A stretch of 64,000 nt of DNA from Aurelia coerulea (lineage: Eukaryota; Cnidaria; Scyphozoa; Semaeostomeae; Ulmaridae). The notes beneath the pieces are model-generated. The model made no database searches and had not been told where the DNA came from. It was given only the letters and a program-made list of their open reading frames with translations. Shown here piece by piece: positions 12,132-43,795 of this stretch; position 1 is the stretch's first letter, and each line of letters opens with the position of its first letter. A program made the position numbers and the translations under genes. The DNA is taken from the NCBI GenBank assembly GCA_039566865.1, contig CM076962.1, positions 8,984,743 to 9,048,742 on the forward strand. The letters run 5' to 3'.

Positions 12132-12844
12132 TTGGATACTGCGGAGGATCAACCTGCTGCTGTACCAGATTGGCAATATATAAGACAGATTTTAATGGAA
12201 AATGAAGAAGGAAAAAATGCAAATTTTACACCTAGAAACGGCCAAGAGACACGAACATTTGGAGAAACGTCAAACGAAAAAAATGCGCAGCAAGAGACAA
12301 TGATCCTTCGGAACGGCTTCACCAAATTGTTTCGGATACTTTAAAAACAATTAGTGATAAAGCGGGTTTTGATCAAACCACATCAGACTATTTGAAGGTG
12401 AATAACCCTAGGTTGGGACGATTCTACCTCCTCCCGAAAATCCACAAAAGGTTAAATAGCGTACCAGGAAAACCTGTTATTTCCAACTTTGATTTGTTTA
12501 TAGAAAACATTTCGGCATTTTTGGATCACCATTTGCAACCATTTGCTAAAAAGGCTCGGTCTTATATAAAAGAGACAAATCATTTTTTTAAGAAAATCAT
12601 GGATCTGGATGGCCTCCCTGAGGGCGCTATTTTATGCACCGTGGATGTGGTGGGGCTTTATCCAAGTATTCCTCACGAGGAGGGATTAGAGGCTTTACGA
12701 GAAGCACTTGAACATCGGGAAATAACACTATTTCCACGGATACCCTTCTTGAATTAGCTCGCGTTGTTCTTAAGAACAATTTTTTCGAATTTAATGGCGA
12801 TTTCTATCAGCAGCTTTGGGGTACAGCAATAGGTACAAAATGCG
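12132..12844 (+). pseudogene. Penelope-like RT, first half (piece 1)
   Basis: The frame includes DYLKVNNPRLGRFYLLPKIH and PGKPVISN, then FLDHHLQPFAKKARSYIKET, then CTVDVVGLYPSIPHEEGL, and after a frame change GTAIGTK. These are the signature blocks of Penelope-like element reverse transcriptases, and TVDVVGLYPSI holds the first catalytic Asp. The left part (12132-12390) needs frame changes, for example near 12300. The piece stops inside the GTAIGTK(F)AP block at 12844, and the same codon resumes at 21314, so the element is interrupted rather than truncated. Confidence 0.85.
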
Positions 12845-12869
12845 TAGACTAACTACTTCAGTCCCAATT

Positions 12870-13165
12870 TCCGCTTCGTTCATTGAATTGGATGACGGCA
12901 CTACGCTTCAAGTGGGACCAGGGAGCGCCGAAGGCGCGGGATGCGAAACAGCTAATGTTTTGAAAATTGATGTTCGATGCGCAGATCGAAAACGAGGTCG
13001 AGTGCTATCAAGGCAAAATGCCGGCGGGAAGATGGAAAGCTGTGGGGGAAAGCGAAAATGGTTAGGCAAGAGAATTCAACATTTCCTCCAAGGTTTGTTA
13101 TTAACCCGTTGAAGTTGCTGGCCAGGGATCTTCAAATTGATGTTCAAAAAGGCGCGTCTGGTATA
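12870..13165. promoter_or_regulatory. GC-rich block with GGGAGCGCCGAAGGCGCGGGA
   Basis: Near the left edge of Z, a palindromic GC-rich phrase (GCGCCGAAGGCGC, about 12925) sits in otherwise AT-rich DNA. A near-identical phrase in reverse orientation is at 17670-17690, where it lies between two divergent candidate first exons. The two blocks also share GATGCGCA and CGA-GAGG-type words nearby. The shared block may be a promoter-type sequence carried by both ends of an internal unit. No confident exon follows it. Confidence 0.35.
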
Positions 13166-13169
13166 GGTG

Positions 13170-14292
13170 AAACGAGATAAGCAGATGACACCATCTTCAC
13201 TTTTGAAAGACAGCGAATTTGTTTCATCTTTCCAGCAAAGCTATCTTCATGCAAGAGATTCAGAAAAGGGCCTATTATTGGCTTTGAGCTTTTTTGCAGT
13301 TGGACTTGCACTCAAGAACCATACACAAACGACTGTGTTGCTCAGTGTGTAGGCTGCTGCTTTGGATGCTATGCAAGCCATCATGTAGTTTCTAATGAAT
13401 TAATGGGGACACTATTATGGTGGGTATTATGCTGGCAAGCTCTCTTTTAAATGCTAAACGGCGAAGTTCAATAACTGCAACTGCAAGAAATATGCATTCT
13501 TCCGACGTACAATACTGGAATGGAACCTCTTACCCATAACTCTTATCACAAGTCAAAGTATTGACTGTTTTAGAAATAGAGTAAGCGATTAGTAGTGTGC
13601 CACGTTCCCATCAATTTAGATGGATAGGGATTTTATTTTAGGAAACTCTGAAAAAAGAACTCTTTTAAAAACTGTTTAGATAATTCTGCATATTTCTTTT
13701 TTAGCTTTGACATCCAGGGTGGAAAGTATGTAATACGTGCAAACTCTTGTGCTCAGTTTGAAGCTTATGTGCACTTCCTCCTGCATATTGGGCAGCTTGA
13801 AGCAAGTAGATGATTTGCCCTAATCCAATACCGATCATAAGATCCCAAAATTTTACAAAGTATTAGCTGACTTCCACTCTGGCCTGTCACCCTGTCATAA
13901 TCTTCTTTTTAGAAGGCAGGCAGTATCTGGTTGTAGATGCAAAATGATTAAAGCAAAATTCTAGTGCAGTAGATCAGGCTCACGTGTCAATGCCATATGA
14001 GATACCAATACCAGTTTTATGCATTTAACTTATTCCTGCCTGTGAAAATTGCAAATCAATCAGCCAAAATAGCAGATCAAGTTTTGACCATATAAATACA
14101 CAGTAAGAGCAAGTTAAAAACTGGAAATTACTGCATGAGTGATGAGTTTCAATTTGCAACTATAATTTGAAACAAGCAAAGGGTGTTTTTAACTGTTTAG
14201 ATTGCACAAAAGAAGTTTCCAAAATAATGTTTCAAGAATTTTTTTGCCATTGCTTATTTATCCAAGAGTTTAGTTTCTTATGAGGGGTTTCC
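13170..14292. other. No gene seen
   Basis: AT-rich DNA inside insertion Z. No conserved coding phrase, terminal repeat or RNA gene was recognised. Short GTTTCTTA-type words resemble those in element W. Confidence 0.4.
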
Positions 14293-14858
14293 TTAACCCT
14301 ATCTCACCTGGGCGTTTTGAAGCGGTCAATACCTGTCCACCCCCCCCCCCCTCTTTTTCTTCGCTGTTGTAGTAGCTACAATCTTTAGAATTGGTAAATA
14401 TATATACTTTGATGCAAACAATCAAAATCACATGATTAAATCAAATTATCTCTATTGTTCTCGTTGCTATGACAATAAGAAGATTTTAAGTTATGATTAT
14501 CATGATTATTACCAACATGATTGAAACAATGAAATGAGGCACTAAATTGAAATCTTTTGTTTCAAATTGAGTTGGATATCATCAAATACATGTGTAAGTA
14601 CAATTTAGCATATATTTGAGATTAAAATTTGCAACAATTAAAAAAAGTATACAAATTTTGTTGACTACACAGTAAAACATTGGTTGCCATGGTTACGAGG
14701 CTATATTTAGCATCTTGAAATTTTCATCATTCGATACAGTATAGATATAAAGTCAAAGTAGTGGAGTCTTGGCATCCTGCATTGCATATTCTAGCATTGG
14801 CAAATAAAAGTTTGGTTGGGGAGGGTGGAATCCACCCCCCCAGTTGAGATAGGGCTAA
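14293..14858. mobile_element. Small inverted-repeat element (MITE), 0.57 kb
   Basis: The left end TAACCCTATCTCACCTGGG is mirrored at the right end as CCCAGTTGAGATAGGGCTA. The TA at each edge could be the target duplication, as for mariner-type MITEs. A C-run follows the left end and a C-run precedes the right end. It holds no coding sequence. Confidence 0.65.
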
Positions 14859-14872
14859 AGGAATAACCCCAG

Positions 14873-15272
14873 GGGATACTCCCATTGAGGCTAAACAGGG
14901 GGCTCCAGTCGGTTTTACCATCTGTCAAACCAACACATACTGCCAATTTGAAGATCCCTGGCCAGTTATAAGATTTTAACTCAATACAGTTCTCCACATG
15001 GCAATATGGTCATTGCAGCAATAACCATCAATGAATTTTTTTGCTTTGTTCCAATAGTCTTTACTATAATGAATAATTATAAAAAACTGCAGAAAACTTT
15101 TATTAATAGATGCTACCAAATGACCCAATTTTAGGTCCATGAACTACCATTTTAGTACAGTTCCTGCAAAAAGATACTATCCATTTAATGGTATTTTTCA
15201 AAAATTTTTCTTTGGCCCTCTTCTACCATGTTTTGACACCCCTGTTAGGCCACAATGGGAGTACCCCTGTGT
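14873..15272. mobile_element. Small inverted-repeat element (MITE), 0.4 kb
   Basis: GGGGATACTCCCATTGAGGC, a few bases, then AACAGGGG near the left end matches the reverse complement of CCCCTGTTAGGCCACAATGGG and the following GAGTACCCC near the right end. It directly follows the previous MITE and is non-coding. The exact termini are uncertain by about 10 bases. Confidence 0.55.
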
Positions 15273-16442
15273 GAGTGCTTGTGCCCTATTTTCGGCATTT
15301 GAGCACATTTTCAATAAAGTACATACTCTCAAGTACCAAATAAATGGAGGGGTGTGACTAATCAGGGGTTTGCTTTCATGATAATCAGGGGGTTGGAACA
15401 ATTGGAGGGGGAGGAGGAGGTTTGAAAATAGTTAGTTTATCAGTTAAACCATGTCTTTTTATACTTTGTATTAAACAGCTTGAAAATTGTGTTCACTATA
15501 TAGGAAATTTTTTGATTTATTGTCATAAAGTCTGTCTTAAATTACTGTAGTTGTCACCTGAGATTTGCATTAATGCCAAATTGCTTTCCAAAGCATTTCT
15601 ATTATTTGTTATTCAAATATTCGTGGGGATTTGCACTTGCAGGCAACATCTATTTTGAGACAGTTTATAGATTATCTGTTTCTCTGCATTACATGCCTTG
15701 CACATATCGACATGTTTTACTGCCTAAGAATTCTCAATAAATTTAAAAACAAATTAGTGTCTTCGAATTCTTTTTTCAAAAAAATTACAGTCTTTCACAA
15801 TCACTCAGGAATTTGTTTCATAATGTGACCTGAGGTCTTGAAAATTCTTAAGGATTCTTGTCATGTATATGTGCACAAGGCCTGCATTGTAAAATGGAAT
15901 TCACACTAATTTTTATTGGAAGAAGCAACGTATTAAAATGGACTGTAGCACCATCATCACTCAAGAACCATGAGGTTTTTGAAATGAAAATTGCATTGCC
16001 AGCCCAAATGATACCAAAACAAGATTTGTATTTATATATAATGATTTGGAGTTCTGGTGATTCTTACAGCCAATCTTGACAATCTAAGCAGGTGAACAGA
16101 AAAAGAAACATCCAATGTGCATATTTTTAAACTGATTTGACATTGTAGCACACAAACAGTTTTTTTTTAATCATATTTGCTCAGTATTAGAATGTCTTCA
16201 TTTTTGAATATCTGAGAGTCAAGTTTGTTTCATAAGCAGTTTCTTTTCAGCAAAATATGTGCACGCCACCAATTCTTGCAAGCATACGCCAGGCAGCTGG
16301 AAGGAAAAGATGCAATACTGATAAGATGCAATAAGAAAAGATGCATTATAATAACTGTGTAATGGCTGAGTTTCTAAGTTGCACTTTAAGTAACTGTCTG
16401 AGCTATACAGACCTCATTGATATGCAAGCACACAAACATAAT

Positions 16443-16736
16443 ACCTGTGCGAAAATACAAGGCCATGAAATAGCCATGTACAAGCCTTATGGCCTTGTAA
16501 CCTTGTTTTAGCCTGGAATAGCCTTGCTGTAGCCTTGTAAATGGCTTGAAAAATGCTAATTAGCCTTGTAGAAGCCTTGTGGAAACCTTGTATTAGGCTG
16601 GTTGCAGCTTGGAATCTTACTGATAGCCTTGTAATTTTCTTCCAAGGCTAGTACAAGGTCATAACAAGGTCATAATCTTCTCTACAAGGCTAAAACTCCT
16701 GTACAAGGCCAAGTTTAGCCTTGTATTTTTGTACAG
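16443..16736. mobile_element. MITE filled with TAGCCTTGTA-type repeats
   Basis: Terminal inverted repeats CCTGTGCGAAAATACAAGGC (left) and, on the other strand, CCTGTACAAAAATACAAGGC (right) are flanked by TA on both sides. The interior is almost entirely copies of AGCCTTGTA and its complement TACAAGGCT, about 15 in 290 bases. The left half carries mainly one orientation and the right half mainly the other, so the whole can fold into a long imperfect hairpin. Mariner-type MITE by TSD and size. Confidence 0.75.
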
Positions 16737-17520
16737 GTATCGCCATGCATTAGTTGCTGCAGGCTGGCATTTTTACTGGATTCAGATTGAATTAATTGCT
16801 GGCACAGTTTTCCAACCACTTGCTCACAGAAACAGTTTATCCTTAAGAATGCCTGGGGCTATATAGACATGCCAAAAACTGATTTGAAATATTCCGATTA
16901 GAAAAGTGAAAACAAGTTTTACTTTCTTGTTATGTCAATTTGAGATCAGCAACAGATCCTGTTAGGTCAGACAAGGAAGCTGGATCAGCAAAAGGAAAAA
17001 AATCATCCTCCTTGAAGCCAAAACAACCTGTTATTTTTTACTACTGAAGCCTAACTTGTAAATGGAGCATAGTCTCAGTCAACAAAATAATGGACAACAG
17101 CACTCATTTTACGTGCAGCTTCGACGTCTTTCAATAATGGGCAGGCTACCGGTCAAAACACTCACTGGTCGAGATCCTATCGAATTGGAATCGAACATGA
17201 ACGAATTTCAGAATTCAACCCCTCTCTCCATATCGAGCGATATCTCCAATATGTTATAATATGTTACTTAACTTTTTACAGAACTACTTCCTTATTAGTT
17301 GCACTCACTGAAACTGGTGAAAGCGGCAACTTGGTTGATTTTTATTTTGAGAAAATTGGATGCCGCCGCGTTGAAGTTCTGACCACCCGATGGACTAGGC
17401 CCACTGCAACGGCAAACAAATGCACCCTTTTCGGGTAAAGTGTATTCTGATCGTGCTGATATTACATAAAAACAAGGATATGTCAATCGGGAAGAGTTAT
17501 AACGTAAAAAACTGAACTTA

Positions 17521-17575
17521 CCAAGTACCTTTCTCCAGATTTTGGCTCCCTTTCCAGTTCAGCTTTTGCCATTCA
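17521..17575 (-). CDS. Candidate first coding exon, divergent from RecQ-like exon
   Basis: On the minus strand an ATG near 17573 opens MAKAELEREPKSGERYL and is followed by GTAAGT, a consensus donor. It points away from the RecQ-like first exon at 17923, and the 350 bases between them are GC-rich with a GCGCC-TTC-GGCGC palindrome, like a bidirectional promoter. The protein is not recognised and later exons were not found. It could be part of a host gene pair carried into Z, or chance. Confidence 0.3.
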
Positions 17576-17922
17576 ACCAGCTCGTTCAATTCGGAAAAAT
17601 TTTAAACTCAAGCGCAGCCTCGATCGTATGCGCATCATACATCATTCGCACAAGTCACTGTGCGTTTCCCCTCCCGCGCCTTCGGCGCTCCCTGAGTGGG
17701 ACTGATAATCAAACTAACTGAAAATCCGGCCGAAATCGCCAAAAAAAATGGCGTGGCCAATCAGATTGCAGGATCGTTAACTTGTGATTTGATTCGTCGA
17801 GAGAGGATCTTTGCTAAGCGATGTTGCAACCTATGCTTGCGAAAAATCGAGGACAAGATATGATTCTGTTTTCCGGCGTTTTCCTGCTGCTAAGCTTCTA
17901 GCCCGCGAAACTTTCAATAAAC
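17576..17922. promoter_or_regulatory. Putative bidirectional promoter
   Basis: This GC-richer interval lies between two divergent candidate first exons. It holds the palindromic phrase CGCGCCTTCGGCGCTCCC and a CAATCAGATTG-like CCAAT box region near 17758. The promoter call is inference from composition and exon position. Confidence 0.3.
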
Positions 17923-18033
17923 ATGGCGGACAGTCTTGGCGTAAGTGAGAAGATTAAAGACCGACATAAAATCGCACTGAATGATTTCCAGAAAGCAGTC
18001 TACCTGAACAACCTTGATGGCGAAGATGTATTT
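17923..18033 (+). CDS. RecQ-like helicase first exon (Q-motif region)
   Basis: ATG at 17923 opens MADSLGVSEKIKDRHKIAL, then NDFQKAVYLNNLDGEDVF, and is followed by GTATGT, a good splice donor. RecQ-like helicases read L-x-x-x-Q-x-x-A ... G-x-D-V-F-V-x-L-P-T-G-x-G-K-S here, so the Walker A motif would lie in the next exon, which was not found. If the frame is read through instead of spliced, it gives VCL and then loses similarity. This is an exon of a host-like or captured helicase gene. It has no internal stop, unlike the remnant at 1417. Confidence 0.5.
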
Positions 18034-18387
18034 GTATGTCTGGAAAGACTTTTTTTGGTTTTATTTCGGAGCTGTTTTCGTTGAGAAATGGAGGACAGGA
18101 CAGGAAGGAGGGATGGCCTAAACGTGAATAAAATGACAATCATTGTGTAACTCTCGTTATTTTTCCTCTGTCAAGTTTGATGCTCGTTGATTTAGGCATT
18201 GACGCAAATTTTATCGGCAAATTGCAATCTGACCATGTTGTCAAAGAATCTGTTATACAGGGAAAGATGGAGCTGCTACTTGTAGCCCCGAAGCGAAGGT
18301 AATTTTTGATTCTGGATGGCAGAAAGTGTACACTTCAGCTCATACAAGAATAGAATTAAGACCGTTGTTATGACATACACTTATACC

Positions 18388-18690
18388 CAAAGGGGGGGGG
18401 CACTCAGCACATACACATTCAGAATATAGTCAGTCCAAAAAAATTTATTTCAGGCAACCCAAGAATATCAGTTTAGCCTTTGACATCTGTAAATGAACAT
18501 AACATATTCTGAAACAATGCAAATTCAGGTAGGGATTGCCTTAAATTTTGTCTTTTATGCCAAAAATATCATGGCCATAATTTCAGTATACTTGGACCCC
18601 AAAAATATCATTTTTTGGAATATTCTAACCGAAAAATATCGGACTTACCCCTCCGTCTGTGTATGTGCTGAATGTACCCCTGGGCTTACG
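18388..18690. mobile_element. Small inverted-repeat element, 0.3 kb
   Basis: GGGGCACTCAGCACATACACA near the left end is mirrored by TGTGTATGTGCTGAATGTACC near the right end, with a G-run and a C-run at the outer edges. It is non-coding. Another G-rich phrase pair at 18725 and 19270 may belong to a further decayed element. Confidence 0.6.
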
Positions 18691-18802
18691 CCTTACTACT
18701 AGCACAATTACCATTACCATCTACTTTTGGACCAGGGGAGGGCACTTCACTGTTGGATGATAAAGGGGTATGCGCTCCAAGAATTTCTGTTATGACCCAA
18801 TA

Positions 18803-18962
18803 GACGATCACGCTTAAGATGGTGGCGAGGAAATTTTTACCAAGATGCAATGCGTTCTGATTACGAATCTTTAACATTTCTATAGGAATCCGATTAAAGA
18901 GCGCAATGCATCTCGGAAAAACTTCCTCACCGCCATCTTTAGCGTAATCGTCTATTCCAGGA
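18803..18962. repeat. Long hairpin, about 60-base arms
   Basis: The left arm ACGATCACGCTTAAGATGG through AAGATGCAATGCGTTCT pairs with the right arm AGCGCAATGCATCT through CCATCTTTAGCGTAATCGT, around a loop near 18860-18895. It lies inside insertion Z. It could be a very small foldback MITE or an element core. Confidence 0.6.
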
Positions 18963-19299
18963 TAAAGGTGGGATTTTGAGACCTTATCCCAGAATATGGA
19001 TGTGGTTCCTGACACCTGTTTTACAAAAAAAACAATTATAAGATTGTTGTTTATCCTAAACAATAAAAATGAGCATTCTCAATTTAGCAAAAATTAGACC
19101 CCAATCCCAGAATATTTCTATAAAAAGTACATTCTACCCCAGTAAATAATTCACGAATCTCTGTCCTGAGAAAAGTTGAAAATCTCCCAGATAGAAATCA
19201 TTTCCACGCAGGTGCAATTCCTGCCAAAGAGTACGCTATCGTCAAAAATATGACAGTAATTTTCTATCATTCGGACCCCAGGGGAACACTTAGGCCAGG

Positions 19300-20520
19300 G
19301 TCCACTAGGATCCTTCATTTAGAAATTGTCTTTGGCCATGTTAGTAGATTTTTGTATTTTAAACCAAATTCTCTTGTTTTTTGAAGGATTTCCCAATTTT
19401 TCATGACATTTAATTTGCATAAAATTGATTGAAGTTTCTTGAGGCTCTTGATGTTGCTGCAGTCTTCGTTAGATGTTTCAAGACATAGGCAGAGAAAAAT
19501 GACAAGTCTGTAAATATCCAAAAATCATAAAGCATCATAGAAAGATTCAACCTGCATTTTAGTGACAACACATATTTGACATTATAACATACTGTATCAC
19601 AATAATTGAAAGTATTTTAATATCATGTTCATCATTAGCAACAAGATGTTCTCCTGCAATGACCAAAAATACTTTCAAATAAAAATACAAGTTCTCAAAG
19701 AAAATGTCTGGAACCAAGAAGTTGCCTTGTGTACAGGAGGTTATATACATATAACTTCAGCTAGGTCAGCAGGAATTGTAACCTCGTAATGTTGCATTGC
19801 TTACTCATGAAAAATGATTCTTAGGATATTCTGCTCATAGGTAAAGCTTCCTGATCTGAAGGCATAACAGTTTCACAAAAATACCAAATTCAGTCTGAAA
19901 AAACAATTTTTGGTCTGCAAAATTTCTGGGAGTACTTTGCTCTTACTCTAAAATGAATGCAAGTCATTCCTGTCATACAATATCTGTTATACCATAGTCA
20001 TTCAAAAGAATACAGTATCTCATATGCAGTACTTAAGTGTTAGTATAAGAATATTATTCTTTAGTGAATTTGACAAAATTATCACTGAGTCATTTTGCAT
20101 GAAGTGAAACTATCAAGTTTTGTGATATTGACTTCAGTGATATCATGTAAAAAATAACGCATCATTAAATGACAATTTTAGTGATGATTTGTACCTCACA
20201 TTTTTATGCAGTAAAACAAAACATGACCTAAAGTTTGCAATCAAATACTGTTCACATAATACCAAATAATACAACACATAATTTATGAAATGTTTCCTGC
20301 AATTTCTGTGTCTGTGTATAACACTTTTCACTACTCCTCTGTTCCAGAATTATTCCATTGTTGGATTTGATGACTATCTTCCTGCAAAAAGATTAGAACA
20401 TTGGGGTATATGGAAAGTAAAACAGCACAAAAATTGTTACCTTTGATACAGACGAAGCAGCTCCTTTTTTCATTATCTGATCACCCTCTTTTTACCTGCT
20501 TTTTCATCACCTCATTAATG
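19300..20520. other. No gene seen
   Basis: AT-rich DNA in insertion Z. No protein-like frame, clear terminal repeats or RNA gene was recognised. Confidence 0.4.
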
Positions 20521-20524
20521 CCAT

Positions 20525-20725
20525 ATTGAAGCTTGACTCTCTTTCGAGCGGGGAACAGATAAGGGTAGGACTTTCTATTTTAGTTGGTGTTGACTCAATA
20601 ACATCCGTCAGATATTGCGAAAATAGGTTCTTTTGTTTGTCTCCATGATAAAGTTGTGCCTCAAGGGCTATGACCTTTAATCTAGCCTTCTCCAGACACT
20701 CAGAGTTCCGATGACACGTTCTGCA
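20525..20725 (-). CDS. Candidate internal or terminal exon, unknown protein
   Basis: On the minus strand a pyrimidine-rich acceptor ending TTATGCAG precedes an open frame reading TCHRNSECLEKARLKVIALE, then AQLYHGDKQKNLFSQYLTDV, and ending ALMR with a stop. The amphipathic Leu/Ala pattern suggests a short coiled coil after a Cys/His pair. A minus-strand ATG with the donor GTAAGT about 350 bases upstream (MNSATVQ, near 21060) could be its first exon. The protein was not recognised. The call is inferred from frame and splice signals. Confidence 0.3.
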
Positions 20726-21313
20726 TAAGAGTAGAGAGCATAACTGTCATCTAAGTTATCTTAACAACAAATAACATTTTGCAAGCTCATACTTCTGATA
20801 AAATTTTGGAAGGCTTGTCAGAAACGCAAAGCTTTCGTCAAAACTTGGTATCTTCTATCATTGAAAAGTTCACACAAGTCAACTTCTTCTTACTTAGGCC
20901 CTGGCTTGGCCTTCACTTTCCATCTTTGCAACATTATTCTGATTCAGACTTTACAAAGTATTTAAGTAGATATGAAGAGCGCATCTTTCTACCTTGCCAA
21001 TCGAGCACAAAACATTAACGGTTGAACTTACCTGAACGGTAGCCGAATTCATGAAAAAATGCCACGAAAAGCCGTCAGCCGACCTGCATCACAACACTTG
21101 AGAGTTATCTGGCAAAGAAACAACAACAACAGCAATCCAAAGACATTCTGTATGATTGGCTGACCATGATACGATATTCTGCGGAACCGGAATGATCATT
21201 ACGAGGCTGACCTCAACTGGCCGATTTTCCGAATAGCTTGATCACGAGTCGTAGTTATAGCGTCCATCAGTCTATCAATAGCGATAACTACGAACGTGTA
21301 ATCAGTGTACCAG

Positions 21314-21712
21314 ATGCGCGCCTTCATATGTGATTCTTTTTTTGGCAGCGCTAGACGAAAAGCAACTTGCTAAGGCTCAAGATAAACCGTGGGTATGGTG
21401 GAGATACATAGGTAACGTTTTTTTTAATTTGGCAACATGGGGAGGAAAAACTTAGAGATTGTATAACTTTCTTAAATGGGGCTCATGACTCGATTAAGTT
21501 CACTGCAGATTGGTCCACAGAGAAGGTTAATTTTCTCAATGTTCAAATCATCAAACAAGGCAACAGACTTATAACGGATTTGTTTACAAAATCTACTGAT
21601 ACTCATCAACTCTTGCATCGAGCTTCCTGTCATCCGAACCACACCAAAAAGAGAATTCCATATAGTCAGGCCCTTATAATCGTCGTATTTGCTCAGAGTT
21701 GTATAAGCTTGT
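21314..21712 (+). pseudogene. Penelope-like RT, second half (piece 2)
   Basis: It resumes exactly at the broken codon with CAPSYVILFLAALDE, then KPWVWWRYIGNVFF. The catalytic YIDD box reads YIGN, so both aspartates are lost. After a frame change it continues with LNGAHDSIKFTADWS, VNFLNVQII, and then TDTHQLLHRASCHPNHTKK, IPYSQAL and RRICSE. These are the standard C-terminal RT blocks of Penelope-like elements. The frame ends at the edge of the Gypsy/CR1 compound near 21712 and is taken up again near 28235 (NRVGDLKTWLLARGY). Confidence 0.85.
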
Positions 21713-22262
21713 GTTGCCCAAAGACAGCGTTAGGCAATGAGAAGACGATGTAACAACAACGATAATATGACAATACGATGTTTACATCGAATGTCAACGA
21801 TGAGGAGAACGTTACTTCAAAGATACTGAGTTCATACGTGTTCGTTCATAAGTGATACGTCAATGTCAATGAGAGTGATGCCGAGGTGGCAGTTCCTAAG
21901 GTCGCCCCTTCATGCCCCCCCCCCCTTTCCTGACTACAGGCAGGTGACTGGCATGGCTGTAGTCATTCATTGGTTTAATGGTAGTATTGACCACGCAAGA
22001 CAGGAGACAGTACTCTACTTGGTCGGGCCGTTCTCGTACTCCGGCGTAATACAACATTTTCAGTCTGCATCTCTGGAACTGGTGGTGGTAGCTCAGGTGG
22101 TTGAGGGGTTGGGGGTTGTTGGTGCGGTGATGGTGTTGATGGTGGGGAGGTTGGCTGCAATGGTGGCTTTTGCAGTGGCAGAGGGGCTTGGGTGGCTGGT
22201 TCGGATGTCTGATTGTTTGCTGGTCCGGCCTGGGGCATGGGTGTTGAAAGTGGGAACTGCAA

Positions 22263-22470
22263 TCTTGGCCAAAAGAAGCTGGGACTGAGGCAAATTTCAG
22301 TGTGTTCATGATGTTTCCTAAAATATCGAGGAGAAAACATACGTTTAGAGTCTCCTAATCCCCCTTCCCCCTACTTCAATGTTGAGAAGGTCGAAAGGTG
22401 TTTGATTCAAGCAACTTTGAAACGGGGGGAGCGGGGGGCACGTAATCAAAGACCGAAGTAGTGCAATTTT
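22263..22470. repeat. Direct repeat, copy 1 (about 208 bases)
   Basis: It is near-identical to 23303-23513, running from CAATCTTGGCCAAAAGAAGC to GTAGTGCAATTTTAT with a handful of differences. The two copies enclose about 830 bases that the Gypsy frame does not explain. This could be a short LTR-flanked (TRIM-like) element or a local duplication. No clear target duplication was seen. Confidence 0.6.
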
Positions 22471-23302: not shown

Positions 23303-23513
23303 ATCTTGGCCAAAAGAAGCTGGGACAGAGGCAAATTTCAGTGTGTTCATGATGTTTCCTAAAATATCGAGGAGAAAACATACGTTTAGAGTCTCCTAAT
23401 CCCCCTTCCCCCCTACTTCAATGTTGAGAAGGTCGAAAGGCGTTTGATTCAAACAACTTTGAAACGGGGGGAGCGGGGGGCACGTAATCAAAGAACGAAG
23501 TAGTGCAATTTTA
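23303..23513. repeat. Direct repeat, copy 2 (about 210 bases)
   Basis: Partner of 22263-22470, same orientation, with a few substitutions and one extra C in the C-run. It abuts Gypsy-like coding sequence on its right. Confidence 0.6.
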
Positions 23514-32937: not shown

Positions 32938-33068
32938 ATAGAGATGCAATTGCATGGAATATCTAAAAATGTTGGACACCTGAGGTTCACGAAGATTTTC
33001 AAATATGAATTTATTTGGGGTCCTTCTATAAGAAACCTTTCTAAAATCAGGCTGAGAAGTTTCTTATA

Positions 33069-33952: not shown

Positions 33953-34028
33953 TATGAGGGCACCATTTCTCAAAATAATCAGCCTGAGGTTTCTTATAAA
34001 GTGGTTTCTATTTTGCGGGTTCTTACTG

Positions 34029-35280
34029 TATTTGAGAAACTTATCTTTGACCAGTTGTACCAGTACATGAATGTGAATGGATTTCTGACACCAGACCAGT
34101 CTGGTTTCAGAGCTCTACATTCAACTACAACTTGCTTGCTGAAATGCACAGATGATTGGTATAACGGCATGGATAAGGGTCTTTTGACTGGCATGATCTT
34201 TATTGATCTCAAAAAAGCTCTTGACATGGTTGATCATAAAACTCGCGCACTATGGTGTCCTACGTAGGGAGCTATCTTGGTTCAAATCCTATCTCGCTAA
34301 CAGAAAGCAGTATTGTCGAGTAAATGGTGTAGACTCTAATATGGGGAGCATCGAGGTGGGAGTCCCACAGGGCTCTTGTCTCGGTCCACTCCTATTTCTA
34401 GTGTACATAAATGACCTTCCATGCGTTATAAAGAACTCTAAAGTGTCTATGTATGCTGATGATACAAGTACTTATCATTTTTCGAAAGACATTACTCAAT
34501 TGAACGAGGCTATCAATGAAGATCTACGGAAACTTGATACGTGGCTAAAGGGGAACAAACTATCCCTCAACGTAACTAAGACCCATTCTATGCTATTTAC
34601 CACCAAACATAAGAAGAAGCATCTAGAGATTTCAAATCAAACTTTCCAACCTTCCATTCGCGAGACTATAGTCGAAGTTGCAAGTAATACTAAGTACTTA
34701 GGTGTTCAAATCGACGAAAATCTCACATGGAAGGAGCAAATAAAAACAGTCACTGCGAAAGCTTCCCGAGCTATCGGCATCTTGAAATACGCCAAAAAGT
34801 ATCTTCCTGCTGGAGTTGTGAAGACTGTCTATAGCAGCATCGTGGAGCCTCATTTCCAATACTGTTGTTCTGTTTGGGGTTGCTGCAATTCCACGGACAT
34901 CTTACAATTGCAGAAACTTCAAAACAGAGCAGCCCGTGTTGTGACCAATAGTCAGTTCGATGCTCCAAGTAAACCCTTGATACAAAGTTTAGGTTGGCAC
35001 ACGATCAAGGAGCTGATAGATAGATAGACAGAAGAAACTAATGGTTTTTAAATGCATCAACGACCTTGCTCCTACCTATCTTAAAATCTTTTCACCAAAA
35101 AAGCTGATTGCACCGAACGTAGCCTACGAAATACAAACACTGACTTAAGGCTGCCTTTGAAAAGTGCCGCTAATGGACAAAAATGCTTTTCATTCAGGGG
35201 TGCAAAAAGCTGGAACAGCCTTTCAACTGAGGTTAAACAGGCATCTTCGGTCAATGCCTTCAAGAGCCATATTTAGCGTA
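34029..35280 (+). pseudogene. LINE B reverse transcriptase core and C-terminus
   Basis: The frame starts FEKLIFDQLYQYMNVNGFLT, then QSGFRALHSTTTCLL and FIDLKKALDMVDH (first Asp). A one-base shift near 34235 moves it to the frame with VGVPQGSCLGPLLFLVYIND and SMYADDTSTYHF (intact YADD), then LGVQIDENLTWKEQ, HFQYCCSVWGCCN and AARVVTNSQFD. A stop near 35025 follows ELIDR, and the C-terminal block LRLPLKSAANGQKCF, then FRGAKSWNSL runs to about 35275. L2-like family by these blocks. Frameshift and stop make it inactive. Confidence 0.85.
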
Positions 35281-35518
35281 GACTGCTGTGTAGATAATAT
35301 ATTTTAGATACCCTGTAAATTGATTTTAACACTGATAATTATTTCTAACATTGTTTTTAATAGATTAATTAGACTTTAACATATTGTAAATAGGGTTTCT
35401 CTTTCCTTTGTATTATATTATCATTGTATTGTATCGTAGATGGAGGGCCCCTTGAAAATCAGCACTTGCTGAAGGGCTACCCTCCCTAAATATATGAAAT
35501 CAAATCAAATCAAATCAA

Positions 35519-37087
35519 ACATGACTGAAAGTAAGGCTTTCGAGATAACTTTTCGAGTACCTTCACGAAAATAAAAGTGGACATTTAACTAATAAAGATA
35601 CAGAGCTGGTTTTACCACGAATCGATTCGAGAGGCCCCACTCCACATTTGTTTTTCCTTTGGTTAAACTCTCATCTGGGATCGGCGTTACATCGAATTTC
35701 ATTCCTTCGAAAATTGGCCTGTGTTCAAGAAACCTTCAGGAACGCTAAAAATATGATATAGCTTTCAAAATTTCACATGCTACGTGAATTATGTCCCAGA
35801 ATAACATGAAAATATTTACTTGTTTAATTTTCGAAAATCCTTGACGAATTAAAGCTATTTGCTGCCAAGAAAGCTGATGGGCCTACTTTCACCCGCAGCA
35901 GAATCCCAGTAATCGGCATTAAATCACTCCTTTTCGCATTGATAACCAGCGGATACATTAACGAATAACTTAACCACAGTTCCAATTTCTTTCCTCCAAT
36001 TTATCATCGATAATTTCGATAAATGAGATAAGACTTTACAGCCTCAGCAGCAAACTGTCCAACTACCGTCGATTCAAAGTTTTCTTGTTGCAAACACCTT
36101 GGAAGTCTTGCAAAACTTGCATAAAACAAAAGGTTTTGCAAGACTCAGGTCTCCCATATGACACAGCAAAATGTCACCTTTGAGAATAGATTGCACACTC
36201 CTGAAGGCATTCCATCGCAGCAGAGTAAAGAGAAAATAATACATTTCTCAAAGATTCCAAATTTCTTTGTCACATCGGAATTTGTGTAAAGAAATTTCCA
36301 CTGCAAGCTATTCTCAAAGGTGTACAATCTATTATCAAAGGTATCAATTTGCTGTGTCATATGGGAGACCCGAGTCTTGCACAACCTTTTGTTTTATGCA
36401 AGCTTTCCATGTGTTTGCAACAAGAAGACTTTGAATCGACGGCAGTTGCACGGTTTTCTGCAGAGGCTGTAAAGTCTTATCGCATTTTATCAAAATCATC
36501 GATGATAAATTGGTGGAAAGAAATTAGATGTGTGGTTAAGTTATTCGTTCATGTATCCGCTGGTTATTATTGCGAAAAGGAGTGATTTAATGCCGATTAC
36601 TGCGATTCTGCTGCGGGTGAAAGTAGGCCCATCAGCTTTCTTGGCAGCAAATAGCATTAATTCGTCAAGGATTTTCAAAAATTTAACAAGCAAATAATTT
36701 CATGTTATTCCGGGACATAATTCACGTAACATGTGAAGTTCTGAAAGCTATATCTTATTTGTAGCATTCCTGAAGAATTCTTGAATATAGGCCAACTTTT
36801 GAAGGAATTAAATTCGATGTAACGCCGATCCCTGATAAGATTTTAACCAAATGCAGAAAAACAAATGTGGAGTGGGGCCTCTCGAATCGATTCGTGGTAA
36901 AACCAGCTCTGTATCTTTATTAGTCGAATACCCATTTTTATTTTTGTGAAGGTACTCGAAAAGATATATCGAAAGCCTTATTTTCAGTCATGTGATCGGA
37001 ATACGGCGATATCATTGGCTTATAAGCGTGAAATTGGAAGATTTGCGGGTTTCTCTGTGCCCTTTTGAAAGATTTGACTCGTATGCT
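35519..37087. repeat. Large palindrome of element X
   Basis: Bases 35519-36195 pair with about 36320-36998. Matching words include ATACAGAGCTGGTTTTACC and its inverse, and GGTCTCCCATATGACACAGC and its inverse near the centre. The arms differ by scattered substitutions, which lets them be cloned and aligned. The last 98 bases (36990-37087) pair with 28738-28835 beyond the LINE. No coding frame is supported. Confidence 0.8.
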
Positions 37088-37111
37088 GCAACAAGATATA
37101 CGTGGGTAGTA
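37088..37111 (+). pseudogene. Penelope-like GIY-YIG, first residues (piece 4)
   Basis: Twenty-four bases between element X and the TA-target transposon encode the end of CNK and IYVGS, the start of the GIY-YIG endonuclease (usually Y-V-G-x-T or Y-I-G). The next codons, TKTKFRQRFNVYKS, are at 43044 onward. Confidence 0.8.
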
Positions 37112-37822
37112 TGGTAAGACGGGGTAAAGTGAACTACGGGGTAAAGTGAACTACTCAGAACATTCGCACTTCTCTCTAAAAGTAAACATGCACTGATAAA
37201 TCTTGATTTATGCCCAATGCTCTGTTATATGTGCGCACAGAAAATGAAAGCATTTTCGCAAAATAGTTTTTTTTTTTTTTTTTATATAATCAATTAAAAT
37301 ATAACAAACTCAACAAGTACATCTACTGTGCCTATCATGGCGGGAATAGACACTAGGTCATCGGAGTTCCCACCATGAAAGGCACTTACAATTCAAAAAT
37401 TACAACATACTAAAAGAAAGGACAACAAACTAAAAAAAAAGTTAATGTCTGTCTCACATTTGATGTCAGGCAATGACATCAAACATTTTATAATTTTTTG
37501 GGAGAAAATAGATGCAATGCAATGAACAGAGGGCCCCACGCGCGGACAAACAGCCGCCGCCCCTCGCCACATGTGCCACCCCCACCGGGATAACACATGA
37601 AACTAAAGGGCAGCAGCCGCCCCCCCCCCACACAGCAGGACCCCATCCACTCACCACCCTGCACCCGCACCCTAAGATAAAAATTTACAGTTGTCTATCG
37701 CCTAACATCAAATGAGAGACAGAATTTTCTACAAAAACTACCAAAATCATTCAAAAGGATATTTGGGGGGGGGATGCTGCTGCTTTGTTTACGCTTCAAT
37801 CGAATCTCTTCGTTGCCTTGAT

Positions 37823-38700
37823 TTAAGTAATTGTTGCTTCCATAATCATCCTATTTGTAATTAGGGTTAGGTCTGCATTTCCAAATAAGATTAAATGGCA
37901 TAAGGATTGTGTGTCCAATCCTACTATATCTAACCCAGGAATATCCGATAAGCTGCCAAGAAGATCTCTTCGTGCTGCTTCGAAAAAATGGCAGTGCAGG
38001 AGGAAATGTTCACTATCTTCATCAGCAGTACCACACCGGCAGACAGGATTGAGACAGTCAAAGTTGTGTTTGAATCTATGCTCATTTAGTCCACTAAACT
38101 TTAGTCGCAATTTTGACAAGTGCCTAATCCCAACAATATCATTTATACCGTAAATTGAATTCTTATTGGGTCTTGTCATCGCAAGTAATTTGCGCTTAAA
38201 CTCAGAAATTGACTTTGAATTTTTTGTTTCATCATCAAGCAAATTCCACTCAAAAGGAGCATTTTGAAAATAGGTGTTCGAGTATCGCGCAGTTCTTCCA
38301 ACATTTTGGTGATACATTCTCATATTTCGAAAATTGTAGCTTACGTTTCGCTCAGGGGGAATTTCAGCAAACAAATAATCTGGGGAATGGGATTTCGTCA
38401 AATTGTAGAAATGACACAGTCGTCTATACCATCTCCTGAGATACAAGTCCTCCCAGCCAAGTTCCCTGTAAAGACGTTCCCTGCTTGTTCCTCTCCATGC
38501 ACCAGCTACCGCTAGGGCAGCACAATACTGAGTTTGTTCAAGTCTCTGTTTAAACTTTGGACGCATTTGAGGATCGTATTTATGATAAATGATATCTCCA
38601 TAATCAAGATGTGGTCTAACATAAAGCTTATATATTTGATCTAAAATATCTCTCGAAACATACTTGGAAAGGTATCTTATCATCCCGATGCCGCGCCTCG
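37823..38700 (-). pseudogene. 2A LINE: RT thumb and C-terminal CCHC-like region
   Basis: This continues the RT frame after a one-base loss in a G-run near 38717. IRYLSKYVSRDILDQIYKLY, RPHLDYGDIIYH and LYRELGWEDLYLRRWYRRL lead to a C-terminal Cys/His block CLNPVCRCGTADEDSEHFLL and then HC. The C-x3-C-x-C...H-x3-4-H-C pattern is common at the C-terminus of Jockey/CR1-group LINEs. The frame is open for 286 codons and ends at 37823. Confidence 0.85.
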
Positions 38701-40858
38701 CTTTTTGTATTGCCCTCTAATGTGACTTTGAAAGTCTAGCTTGGAATCAAGGATCATACCAAGATGCTTGTGCTCACTCTTTCTTGCTACGTCATCATTA
38801 CCAAAAGACAAAGGGGGATGGATTGGTTTGACCCTCTTGGCAGAGAAAATGACTTCTTCCGTTTTCTCAGTATTAAATTTCATTTTCCATTGCCACGCCC
38901 ATAGTCTTACCCTCTCCAAATCTCTATCCAGTTCTTCTGCAGTTTTGAGCTCATCATAGACAGCTGTAAAAAGCGATGTGTCATCAGCAAAGAGCTTAAT
39001 ATCGCATCTAACATTCTCAACAAGGTCATTAATGTATACAAGGAAAAGAAGTGGTCCCAAAACTGATCCTTGGGGTACTCCTGCCGATATGTCTGCCCAT
39101 TCAGAATTTTTACCATTCAGCAAGACCCGTTGTTTACAATTTGAAAGGAAATTTCGAATTAAATTGAGGAGCTTCCCAGATATACCGTTACACTCAAGTT
39201 TATACAGTAATCCTTCGTGCCATACCTTGTCAAAAGCCTTAGAAAAATCTAAGAAAACAGCACGTGTTTCCCTGCTAGGTGTCTCTTCAAAACCAGTATA
39301 AATTTTATGAGATATGGACAGCAACTGATTTATTGTTGAGTCACCAGGACGAAAACCCGACTGATGGGCAGTCAGGAGACTGTTAGCACAAAAGTGATCG
39401 TACATCGAATCAAACAATAATTTTTCAAACAATTTTCCAAAGACAGGAAGTAAAGAAATTGGGCGATAGTTGTTTTTACATTGTCTGCTACCCTTCTTAT
39501 GAACAGGGATAATGTTTGCCTTTTTTCCAAATTGAGGGATACTGACCGGTTTCAAGACATTTCTCAAAAAAAAAAAAAAAAGGGGTTCAACAATTGTGGA
39601 GTCACATATTTTTATCATAGCAATGGAAATATTATCACAGCCATGTGCCTTTGAGGAATCAAGTGCTCGTATCAATTTGACCACTTTTTGCCTGTTAATC
39701 TCTACATTTTCAAGAATGGAGTCGCACCTAGGCCGAAAATTTGGGAGAGTGCTTCCTGTTGGTATAGCACAGCACTGTTCGATGAAAAAGGTATTCAGTA
39801 AAGTAGCTTTGGTTTGTACATTTGTGATGAACAGTCCATTTTCTAATAACGGAGGAATATTGATGGTTTTCTTCTTGTTGATAAGCCTATTCAAGGTGGA
39901 CCAATAACTCTTTATACCCTCATTTGGATCAGAGAGCTTCCTTCCAAGTCTTTTGAAATATTCTTCCTTACCGTTCAAAATCATTTTAGATGTTTCGTTT
40001 CGAACGCGTTTTACATTATTCCAATCCTGGTCCCTTCTTCCTCGCTGGCAAAAATTCCTATAAACCTTCTGCTTGCGCTTGATGGCTGTTTTTATTCGAG
40101 GAGTAATCCAGGGTGGGTCCTTGTCACAACACTTAATGACCTTGTTGGGAATATAAGAAGTCAGTGTGGCGTAAATGGACGCTGTAAAAACCGCAGTCAT
40201 TTCCTCTGAACCAAGGTTATCAAACCGGGTATGCCAATCTATAGCCTGAAGGTCATGATGAATATTTTGCATGTTTGCCTTAGAGTAATCCCAGATTGTT
40301 CTTTTGTATGGTGGTGGGGACGGTATAGAAATGTTTATTTTGCCATACACTATTTGATGTTGACAGTGCTCATCTAAGGAAGGGTGAACTCCATAATCAG
40401 AAAATAAATTTGACTGATCAGTTATGATTAGATCAATGCAAGACATACTATCGTCTCGAATGTTCGTAGGCTCTTCAATTAACTGATTTAAATTAGTAAC
40501 CTCGATCAGTTCTTCCAACGCTGTCCCCTCTGGTTGCTGGACATCGCCTGCCCACCATTGTGAAGATCTACAATTAAAATCCCCTGTGAGAATCAAAGAA
40601 TGCGGGTTTTCAGCTTTGATTTTTTCCACCATCCTCTGTAGTTTGTCGATGAAATTTTCAAATTGCACACTATTCTGACTAGGACTTCGATATAGGGTGA
40701 CAAAGAACACTGTTTTACGTGAAATGATGACTTCGGTAACGATCAACTCTTGCAATTCTTCGAGATCATTTCTACGTTTTATGGGTAGGCCTTCGCGAAA
40801 ATATACACAAGCTCCCCCAACTTTGGAGTTACTTGGATGGTCACTTCTAAATATATCT
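38680..40858 (-). pseudogene. 2A LINE: endonuclease C-part and reverse transcriptase
   Basis: An open frame of about 725 codons (first Met at 40755). The endonuclease part shows LTGDFNCRSSQWW, MSCIDLIITDQSN and HPSLDEHCQHQ, the conserved Asp/Asn and Asp-His positions. The linker has DPPWITPRIKTAIKRKQ. The RT has KAHGCDNISIAMIK, NNYRPISLLPVFGKLFEK, FRPGDSTINQLL, AVFLDFSKAFDKVWHE, SAGVPQGSVLGPLLFLVYIN and an intact FADDTS. Catalytic residues all look normal. The frame is separated from the N-terminal part by one frameshift near 40870 and from the C-terminal part by one near 38717. Confidence 0.9.
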
Positions 40859-41142
40859 CTACTGAAACCCTATGAAGATTTCATCATTGCTAATGGATCT
40901 ATCTAACATGGATTCAGAAATAGCTATGACATCAAAGTGGTGTATAGAGTTGTAAGCTTCTATTAGAGAGGTCTTTATACCACCCCTAGCACAAATACTA
41001 TTCAAATTCCAATGGCAAAATTTAAGGCAATTTGCAGTTGCCGGGCCTGGATTTGTTTCAATATCACCAGCAAGCAGCATAATCAGCTTCGTAGGAAAAT
41101 CTTCTCCAGCACTAAAAAGACCCAAATATCTGCTAATCAAAA

Positions 41143-41186
41143 ATGCATATACCACATGCTGTAGGAAAATTATGTATCGTTTTCTG
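41143..41186. repeat. 44-base exact direct repeat, copy 1
   Basis: The sequence from ATGCATATACCACATGC to TATCGTTTTCTG is identical to 41343-41386, exactly 200 bases away, inside the 2A LINE N-terminal frame. Because 200 is not a multiple of 3, the two copies are read in different frames (HNFPTACGICI versus RYIIFLQHVVYAF). Confidence 0.9.
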
Positions 41187-41342
41187 ATCTTAGGGCAAGT
41201 CATTAGAGTAGTGCCATTAAATTTTATAAAATCTCTTGAAAACAAAATTAGAAAATAAATTGTGGTGATGACATAGGTAGTAAGTAAGGCAAAATTCGAC
41301 CTTTGACATTTGAGATTAACCAGTTTCTGTTGCCAATGGACG

Positions 41343-41386
41343 ATGCATATACCACATGCTGTAGGAAAATTATGTATCGTTTTCTG
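41343..41386. repeat. 44-base exact direct repeat, copy 2
   Basis: Partner of 41143-41186. The perfect identity against an otherwise unique 200-base unit suggests a recent local duplication in the LINE lineage. Confidence 0.9.
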
Positions 41387-43043
41387 CAAAAACGACGATG
41401 GCAAAAACGAGTGAGAAGGAAAGTGCGCGAATAATGACGTAGCAAGAACAGACACAGGGAGAGTTATCAGTGATACCGCAATTATTAGGTACAAATAGGC
41501 AAAACAACGAAATGAAGTAGCAAGCAATCCACAGAGAGAAACACGCAGGAAGGCCTTTGATGGGGAACGTCTGTAACTATAGGAACCAACTCCTGCACGC
41601 CATTCATTAATTCCTATGGGCATTGGAAACAGCAAAGATCTCCTTGGGTACGCTCACTTGGGAAAAACTTGGAAGCAAACAATCGAAACTTGCAAAAAAA
41701 TAGCAGCAGTTGCATCTTGGGGATAAAGAAATAGATCATAACGAAAAAGCAAAAGAACACACGGACGAACGTCTCTTTTGTCGATTTGATATAGTTCTTC
41801 CTATATACAAAATAGTTCTTCCTGTTGTTGCAAAAAATCCCTTTACCCGAGGCAGAAAAACAACCTCGGGAAATTATGGTTGTTAGGTTTGGGCTCTTAT
41901 CTTTGGTCTTAGTTTTTGACCCCAAGACGAAATTCATTTCCATAGTTGTTTTGATCAATTTGAAGCACATACCATGTGTTTACTTTTTCCAAAAGGAAAG
42001 GGCCAAGAAAGACTTTTTTGTCAGCTAACATAATATTTTAAAAGATCTACCGTCCAGTCGATATTTTGCTTCGACCGGGGTAAAGTGGACTACCCATGAT
42101 TTTTTATTTTCTTATGTGAGCATGAAGTCCTTTTCAATCTCATTTGGTTCATAATTCTGCCTTCAGAAAATCATAATTTACAACATAGTTTTTCGCTGTA
42201 ATGGCACAGAAATATATTCTGATACCAGCTCCCTGAAAAACCTCCAAAATTTTGACAGCCGAAGTTTGACCTTAATTCAAAGATGCGGTTACGGATACAA
42301 GAATTTTATTGGGATTTGATGATGCAAAACATACCTATCGTATCGACATGGAAAGGATAAATGGCCATTACTGTGAAAGTAGAATATTGATAATTGTTAT
42401 AGATTTATAACTATTTTTTGTTTTATTTCTGGGCGGAGGTTTCAGGGCAAAGTGAGCTACATTGAAAATATTGTTTCTCTTTGTGGTAATTTGGTATTTA
42501 TATGCAATCTGGTATTTTTCAAGTATATTCCCATTGTTGTTCATCGACTTGTATTCAGGTCTCGCAATCTGTTTTTTTTGTTGTTCCTTTTTTGTTTTAC
42601 AATAATTCACCTAACTAAGCTGGCGTTTGCTAGCGTCTGCCAAAATGGAATGGTGCCATGGTACACAAAGTGCTTTATAAGATTGCTGTTAAAGAATTTT
42701 CAAGTGCCGTTCATAGGCAGAACCAGATGACGTCATGTCTATTTCTGCTATGGACGGCACAGAATATTGTATTTGTATCTTGTTGAGTTTTTAACTGTGA
42801 TATAAAAAAAAAGAAAAATAAAACTTTACCCCGGCCTGGGCTAAAGTGAACAAGGCAGAGTGGTCGCCAAAGAAAACTCTTTTGTGCGACAATGGTAAAA
42901 GATTTGAAAAATATTTTTGCTGGATAAACTGACCCAAAGACATAATGTCAAAACAACGTTAAAAAGTTTGCCCTCAGGTACAATCTCTTTAGGATATCGT
43001 TGAAAAACCTCCAAAATAGTTCACTTTACCCCGTCTTACCCTA

Positions 43044-43360
43044 CTAAGACGAAATTTCGGCAAAGGTTTAATGTTTACAAATCCTATTTCAGAACATATG
43101 CACGCAAACACGACGAAAACTCTCTCGATAAAGGGAAACCTGTTCCACAAGCAAGTTTTTTGGGTCGTTTTTTTGAAAACGGACATAGTGGGAACTTTCG
43201 GGTTGGTATTAAAATCATAGATGGGGCGGATGATGTTTTTTCACTTCGTAGGAAGGAGTTGTTTTGGCAATATCGACTTCAAACTTTGTCACCCAAGTGT
43301 CTTAATGAAAGAGTTGCAGACGTGGAATTAGACGCATTTGCGTGCGGGGGAACGGCTTAG
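43044..43360 (+). pseudogene. Penelope-like GIY-YIG endonuclease (piece 5)
   Basis: TKTKFRQRFNVYKSYFRTYA, then KPVPQASFLGRFFENGHSGN, VGIKIIDGADDVFSLRRKEL and FWQYRLQTLSPKCLNERV, ending with a stop at 43358. It has the Arg of the GIY-YIG helix (KFRQRF), the FxExGHxG block and the ExFW..R..TLxPxGLN-like end of Penelope-like endonucleases. The Glu is retained in RRKELFW. The domain nicks target DNA for reverse transcription. It is open over this piece, but the element is dead because the RT is interrupted and YIDD is lost. Confidence 0.85.
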
Positions 43361-43750
43361 ATTCTGCCATTGCATCTGACGGTCCCTAGAGGTTGCGTTG
43401 GCGTCCGCTTTGTAGTTACACTTTGTTACTTCGCGCTTTTATGCGTGTGGTGGTAGGGTGGAATTCCCTATCAGGCCATCCGGGATTCAGCAATTGCTAA
43501 AAAAAGTTTTAGCAGCATGCGGATCTGTCGGAGGGTCACTTGGGGTGACTGCAGAGTTGCCAAGGTAGCCTCAAAGGAATCAGTAGAACTTTAAGACGCC
43601 TTCAATCTCTTCTCGAATTTATAAAGGACAAAAAGATTATGTAGAGTGGCATAGGATTTTATTGTTTTTAATTGTAAATATAACATTTTTATGTACATTT
43701 TTGTTTGTAAACAACTTCTTTTGTATATATTCTCGGCTGCCCAGTAAAGT
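43361..43750 (+). other. Penelope-like 3' UTR
   Basis: Follows the GIY-YIG stop. The first 200 bases are GC-richer with no clear frame, then AT-rich sequence leads into the hammerhead-like motif. The 3' limit of the element is probably between 43800 and 43990. Confidence 0.5.
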
Positions 43751-43795
43751 TGTTGACTGATGAAGATTTTTAATCGAAACGTATTACGAAAACAG
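43751..43795 (+). ncRNA. Hammerhead-ribozyme-like motif of Penelope-like element
   Basis: CTGATGA (43757-43763) is followed by a short stem GATT-TTT-AATC (43765-43775), then GAAA (43776-43779) and CGTATTACG, a tiny third stem. That order is the hammerhead core. Flanks TTGTT and AACAG could form a weak first stem. Hammerhead motifs are established in Penelope-like elements. The base expected to pair next to the cleavage site looks changed (ACGA instead of ACGT plus H), so this copy may be inactive. Confidence 0.5.

What the first reader, a model, noticed from the sequence alone, without database searches (positions are those of the whole stretch)
12132..43795. One Penelope-like element exploded over 31 kb
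Five + strand pieces in the right order carry RT first half, RT second half, Cys-rich linker, GIY-YIG start and GIY-YIG end, with codons resuming exactly at three of the four breaks (C|APSYV, CNK|IYVGS, GS|TKTKF). About 29 kb of other elements lie between them. A standard annotator would call four or five unrelated fragments.
Basis: partly seen in the sequence, partly recalled or inferred. Interest (0 to 1): 0.82.

Follow-up and report, generated by a model that had tools for sequence, protein, structure and literature searches.

The report
Penelope retrotransposon split by nested insertions
A dead copy of a common animal jumping gene was hit by four other mobile elements, some of them hit again in turn, so its 2.4 kb now lie scattered over 32 kb; the reading is right, but the event is ordinary.

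Summary
The five + strand pieces are one copy of a Penelope-like element (PLE) that has dozens of close relatives in the same 574-Mb genome. Fifteen close sister copies were aligned to the pieces: 15 of 15 run unbroken through the sites of inserts 1, 2 and 3, and 14 of 15 through that of insert 4; the fifteenth lacks that site through a deletion of its own. All pieces are 93-97% identical (medians) to one subfamily. Inserts 1, 3 and 4 are flanked by ATGCG, GCAACAAGA and TA; insert 2 by AGAG. Codons resume at all four breaks, not three, and break 2 lies at 21698|28228. The copy runs 12125 to about 43858, is 5'-truncated, is flanked by a 14-bp direct repeat, and lacks about 541 nt near 12300. 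It is dead: YIDD reads YIGN, and there are six frame-breaking indels against one sister. Inserts 1, 3 and 4 were hit again. Unresolved: the right end of insert 2, whose second LTR is missing, and the class of the outer element of insert 1. Nested insertion is well known, so interest is low.

The parts
12111..12124 (.). left copy of the 14-bp direct repeat ATGTATCTAGGGTA (probable target site duplication of the PLE)
12125..12844 (+). piece A: 5'-truncated start of the PLE copy and RT first half; about 541 nt missing near 12296-12300 against sister L010; includes TSD copy ATGCG 12840-12844
12845..21313 (.). insert 1, 5-bp TSD ATGCG; outer element 12845-12918 + 17695-21313; no Pfam domain in six frames at E 0.1
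12919..17694 (.). hAT-like element nested in insert 1: 31-nt terminal inverted repeats beginning CAGGG, 8-bp TSD AGTGGGAC (12911-12918 and 17695-17702); no transposase domain found
21314..21698 (+). piece B: RT second half (APSYV ... RRICSE); YIDD of relatives reads YIGN
21699..28227 (-). insert 2: Ty3/Gypsy-like remains (RNaseH, H2C2, rve; LTR 21700-21902) plus a LINE-like RT at about 26411-28164; flanked by AGAG (CAGAG/GAGAG); second LTR not found
28228..28737 (+). piece C: end of RT region and Cys-rich linker (EQFF ... CESCNK); includes TSD copy GCAACAAGA 28729-28737
28738..37087 (.). insert 3: foldback element of about 1.67 kb (28738-28835 + 35519-37087), 98-nt terminal inverted repeats, 9-bp TSD GCAACAAGA
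28836..35518 (+). LINE-like element(s) nested in insert 3: RVT_1, AAATC-repeat tail, 4-bp repeat ACAT at the join
30560..31638 (.). MITE-like element nested in the LINE-like stretch; 8-9 bp direct repeat (A)AAAAGCAA; second copy at 45842-46955
33063..33958 (.). palindromic element within the LINE-like stretch
37088..37111 (+). piece D: 24 nt of PLE (TSD copy GCAACAAGA, then the YVGS codons at the start of GIY-YIG), ending in TA
37112..43041 (.). insert 4: element with short terminal inverted repeats (GGTAAGACGGGGTAAAGTGAACTA), TA on both sides; halves 37112-37271 and 41808-43041; second copy 10716-12075
37272..41807 (-). LINE nested in insert 4: endonuclease and RT domains, poly-A (T on +), 10-13 bp repeat CAAAATAGTT(YTT)
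43042..43858 (+). piece E: rest of the GIY-YIG domain (TKTKF ... FACGGTA stop) and 3' UTR ending in an ATT run
43757..43780 (+). hammerhead-ribozyme-like core CTGATGA..GAAAC in the 3' region, conserved in sisters; no Rfam hammerhead match
43859..43872 (.). right copy of the 14-bp direct repeat ATGTATCTAGGGTA

Best explanation
This is one decayed copy of a multicopy Penelope-like element. Inferred: it integrated by target-primed reverse transcription, arriving 5'-truncated and leaving a 14-bp target duplication. Shown: against a sister it lacks about 541 nt, has frame-breaking indels and has lost the catalytic YIDD. Shown: four unrelated stretches lie inside it without loss of PLE bases at the breaks, three of them with clear target duplications, and those three contain further elements. 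Inferred: it makes no active PLE protein today, and the locus is a record of successive insertions.
For: DNA-level empty sites in 15 close sisters: A and B overlap by exactly the five bases ATGCG in 15 of 15; 21698 and 28228 abut in 15 of 15; CATGCAACAAGA runs straight on at the insert 3 site in 15 of 15; 14 nt lie between 28737 and 43043 in 14 of 15. Similar divergence of all pieces from 16 subfamily-1 copies (medians A1 95.2, A2 93.2, B 95.3, C 94.7, E 96.5, UTR 94.5% identity) against medians of 76-80% to 11 subfamily-2 copies for the five stretches comparable there. Termini seen independently: 16 of 43 rows begin within 12843-12845 at the insert 1 start; 21 of 40 rows end at 21698, the PLE side, while 15 begin at 21699 or 21700, the insert 2 side. 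3' end: 13 of 29 sister loci stop at 43860 exactly, 19 of 29 within 43856-43865. Target duplications and inverted repeats.
Against: The 14 sisters that have the insert 4 site read CA there, not TA, so the TA duplication needs a prior C-to-T difference in this copy. The insert 2 duplication is 4 bp, or 5 with one mismatch, and its right LTR was not found. In one search, 8 of 29 sister loci matched on to 43886, which I put down to the ATT run without resolving it, and 2 stopped at 43805 and 43811. One further copy, L021, is intermediate (80-89% identity by piece). The right ends of inserts 1 and 2 could not be confirmed in other copies because the searches did not complete.
Confidence: 0.97

Rival explanations
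1. The pieces are four or five independent PLE fragments that happen to lie in order.
For: The genome holds many PLE copies: 87 matches reported for one protein query, 3662 candidates at first look.
Against: Exact continuation across the breaks in the sisters, one subfamily throughout, target duplications.
Confidence: 0.01
2. The inserts are introns of a still expressed PLE gene.
For: PLEs can carry introns: PMC3846280 (passages read) reports a spliceosomal intron in a Pen5 copy.
Against: None of the 15 sisters tested has anything at these sites. The gaps hold inverted-repeat elements, LTR and LINE remains with target duplications. Frame-breaking indels and YIGN lie within the pieces themselves.
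Confidence: 0.01
3. Assembly artefact: unrelated sequence joined within a repeat.
For: The region is rich in repeats.
Against: Target duplications and base-level continuation are not expected of misjoins. The window lies inside a 19.4-Mb contig.
Confidence: 0.01

Closest known systems
Penelope-like elements with GIY-YIG endonuclease, Neptune-like group
   Same: RT, Cys-rich stretch and C-terminal GIY-YIG in one frame in the relatives; pseudo-LTR and tandem arrangement of sisters; hammerhead-like core; 5' truncation; flanking direct repeat
   Different: This copy is dead and broken; no Rfam hammerhead match; placement in Neptune rests on the Cys-rich linker only
Nested transposable element clusters (the object of REANNOTATE, PMC2672092, abstract and outline read)
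   Same: An older element interrupted by younger ones, which are interrupted in turn
   Different: Nothing in kind; here the outermost host is a PLE
Adineta vaga Penelope families (PMC3846280, passages read)
   Same: 5'-truncated and internally deleted copies, 8-10 bp target duplications, PLEs in nested insertions (Pen2a_Av sits inside Pen3)
   Different: The target duplication here is longer (14 bp), and this one copy carries four separate inserts

Membership tests
Penelope-like element, EN-containing | RT related to PLE RTs | tested here: met
   Piece A matches 374 proteins at E<=0.001, the best 120 listed with PF00078, PF28514, PF26215 and/or PF01541. Pfam finds no PLE or RT domain in the four pieces taken alone. 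That these proteins are PLEs rests on their RT/GIY-YIG make-up and recalled knowledge; the list names only one source, Clytia hemisphaerica, as an uncharacterized protein.
Penelope-like element, EN-containing | C-terminal GIY-YIG endonuclease in the same frame | tested here: met
   Piece E aligns to the C-termini of P0006, P0007 and P0008 at 70.6-72.5% identity, directly after the YVGS of piece D. Pfam match of piece E alone: none.
Penelope-like element, EN-containing | pLTR / partial tandem organisation | tested here: met
   Met for sisters: three copies within C19:7402870-7411402, and the 3'-end segment 43762-43860 lies upstream of the copy in L010, L011, L012, L013 and L016. This copy has no 5' pLTR.
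Penelope-like element, EN-containing | Hammerhead ribozyme motif | tested here: inconclusive
   Core pattern at 43757-43780 (0.43 expected by chance in the window), present in 27 of 29 sister loci; no Rfam hammerhead up to E 10; fold no better than shuffles.
[quoted passage not shown]
   FRCNGRRSCQICPLM ... CESCNK in piece C and likewise in P0003.
Neptune group | Phylogenetic placement with named Neptune elements | not tested
   No named reference sequences were at hand; no tree was made.
hAT (element in insert 1) | 8-bp TSD and CAGGG-type TIR | tested here: met
   that these features mark hAT is recalled knowledge.
hAT (element in insert 1) | hAT transposase | tested here: not met
   No such Pfam match in six frames; the one weak match, DUF5537 at E 0.089, lies below its cut-off. 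At most a non-autonomous relative, hence 'hAT-like' only.
Ty3/Gypsy (insert 2) | RT, RNaseH and integrase between two LTRs with a 5-bp TSD | tested here: inconclusive
   RNaseH, H2C2 and rve found and one LTR; second LTR not found in the window, the RT present reads as LINE-like (my reading), TSD imperfect.

The most novel reading that the evidence does not exclude
Insert 2 entered as an aberrant LTR-retrotransposon copy: it has one LTR on the left and, on the right, a 55-nt stretch that resembles, in inverted orientation, the interior beside the other LTR of a genomic copy; yet the PLE continues across it without loss of a base. This could record the integration of an end-deleted, partly inverted cDNA. 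Equally open is that the outer element of insert 1 (about 3.7 kb, 5-bp TSD, no Pfam domain) belongs to an undescribed family.
Probability: 0.08. Interest if true: 0.35.

Novelty: new member of a known kind. Interest (0 to 1): 0.15.

Why it matters
It is a clean case of relative dating by nesting, with base-exact empty sites in sister copies, and it shows that a 2.4-kb element spread over 32 kb can be recognised down to a 24-nt piece. It changes no view of how PLEs or transposons work.

Tried and rejected
Independent fragments, introns and assembly error were considered and rejected (see rivals). A hammerhead ribozyme was looked for with Rfam and by folding and not supported by either, though the core pattern is conserved in sisters. 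PDB search with piece A: none. Pfam and NCBIfam on pieces A, B, C and E alone: no PLE or RT domain. Scans of viral contigs and genome contigs with P0003: no relative. tRNA and Rfam gathering scans of the window: none. Searches meant to confirm the right ends of inserts 1 and 2 in the genome did not complete.

Against the simple picture: one of the 43 rows (C1:31955598-31956113) runs across the join between the outer element of insert 1 and the hAT-like element, so that join is not unique to this window; I did not follow it. In one search some subfamily-2 loci (L023, L025, L032) show subfamily-1-like identities for C, E or UTR because a second copy lies beside them in the locus; they were kept in the medians.
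Full report
What was claimed and how it was checked. Piece A alone was scored to find natural relatives: 374 proteins at E<=0.001, the best 120 listed. These were compared with the window by tblastn. Of 120, 58 match A, B, C and E, 20 ABC, 31 AB, 9 A only, 1 ABE and 1 ACE. Proteins such as P0007 (803 aa) cover the pieces colinearly, with at most six residues uncovered at a break.

Sister copies in the same genome. The window lies in a 574-Mb, 294-contig assembly. One protein query gave 87 PLE matches. Piece E with its 3' UTR gave 49 rows, 42 of them at 92% identity or more, one being the window itself; 40 candidates were scored. Fifteen close sisters were aligned to the pieces. In 15 of 15 the A and B pieces overlap by exactly the five bases ATGCG; in 15 of 15 B and C abut at 21698|28228; in 15 of 15 the sequence CATGCAACAAGA of piece C runs straight on into AATACGT, the equivalent of piece D. 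At the insert 4 site 14 of 15 run on into piece E with 14 nt between 28737 and 43043; the fifteenth, L009, has lost that site by a deletion of its own. These are natural empty sites, and they settle the matter.

One subfamily. Median identities to 16 subfamily-1 copies are A1 95.2 (8 copies cover it), A2 93.2 (14), B 95.3 (16), C 94.7 (15), E 96.5 (15), UTR 94.5 (16). To 11 subfamily-2 copies they are A2 77.5, B 79.8, C 76.3, E 78.7 and UTR 78.7; none covers A1 (medians use copies covering over 80% of a piece). L021 is intermediate at 80-89%, and L036 and L037 are more distant in the coding pieces, at 73-75%. The window copy differs from the 15 sisters by 5.0-5.7%, and the sisters from each other by a median of 0.49% (range 0-1.07, 105 pairs). 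I infer an old copy beside a recently active group.

The element itself. It begins at 12125, inside the N-terminal region of relatives, so it is 5'-truncated. It ends in an ATT run near 43858; sister matches end at 43860 in 13 of 29 loci and within 43856-43865 in 19 of 29, while 8 run to 43886 and 2 stop at 43805 and 43811. The 14-bp repeat ATGTATCTAGGGTA flanks the whole. Against L010 about 541 nt are missing at 12296-12300; the two sides there share CAA (GGCAA and GACAA). Frame-breaking indels against L010 are A2 1, B 2, C 3, E 0. The RT motif YIDD of P0003 and P0007 reads YIGN.

The inserts. Insert 1 (12845-21313): TSD ATGCG. In a genome search across its left end, 16 of 43 rows begin within 12843-12845 and 16 others within 12914-12919, so two repeat families meet at 12918|12919; one row crosses that join. 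The second family is a hAT-like element, 12919-17694, with 8-bp TSD AGTGGGAC and no transposase domain. No Pfam domain at E 0.1 was found in six frames of insert 1. Insert 2 (21699-28227): minus-strand RNaseH, H2C2 and rve domains and an RT that I read as LINE-like. Its left end is a 203-bp LTR; of seven long matches elsewhere, five have a second LTR-like match 6.6-9.7 kb away. The window has only one, and a 55-nt stretch at the right end matches the interior of the copy at C12 in inverted orientation. Insert 3 (28738-37087): a foldback element with a 9-bp TSD, split by a LINE-like stretch with an AAATC tail that holds a MITE-like element and a palindrome. A relative of the foldback element abuts a PLE fragment on C3 (L069). 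Insert 4 (37112-43041): an element with inverted repeats flanked by TA, split by a LINE with endonuclease and RT domains. The 14 sisters that have the site read CA there, so the TA must have arisen in this copy before the insertion.

Mechanism. Shown: order, subfamily, empty sites, target duplications, nesting. Inferred: target-primed reverse transcription for the PLE (PMC11167929, passages read: a PLE protein cleaves and extends target DNA in vitro, and truncating its RNA template at the 5' end shortens the product), and the order of events beyond what nesting dictates.

Known or new. The family is an EN-containing PLE, Neptune-like by its Cys-rich linker (PMC3846280, passages read); no tree with named elements was made. 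Nested insertion, and software that rejoins the pieces, are established (PMC2672092, abstract and outline read). Two searches for PLEs with nested or interrupted insertions (listings only) returned 9 and 4 papers, which I did not read for this point, so I claim nothing on whether a PLE broken in this way is in print. Verdict: correct, ordinary, interest low.

Noticed in passing
10716-12075: A second copy of the insert 4 element (87.4 and 91.2% identical to its two halves) ends 35 bp before the left 14-bp repeat of the PLE, so it lies just outside the PLE.
   Followed up: partly
21699-28227 and L071: Insert 2 has only one LTR, and 28169-28223 matches, inverted, the interior beside the other LTR of a genomic copy (82% over 56 columns).
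   Followed up: partly
43757-43780: Hammerhead-like core conserved in 27 of 29 sister 3' regions but not matched by Rfam.
   Followed up: partly
L069 1-1919: A relative of the insert 3 foldback element directly abuts a PLE fragment (77% identical to piece A) on C3; no PLE was seen on its other side within the 10 kb fetched.
   Followed up: partly
30560-31652 and 45830-46955: Two inverted copies of a 1.1-kb MITE-like element, 95.7% identical, with direct repeats of 8-9 bp at their ends.
   Followed up: partly
788-1135, 6308-8054, 10236-10695, 26426-28164: Several diverged, mutually similar fragments across the window, at least one with a LINE-like RT.
   Followed up: no
44385-44806 and 50491-50969: Further long palindromes, 71% and 81% self-complementary.
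   Followed up: no
C1:31955598-31956113 of the genome: One genomic match runs across the join of the two elements of insert 1, as if that nested pair existed elsewhere too.
   Followed up: no
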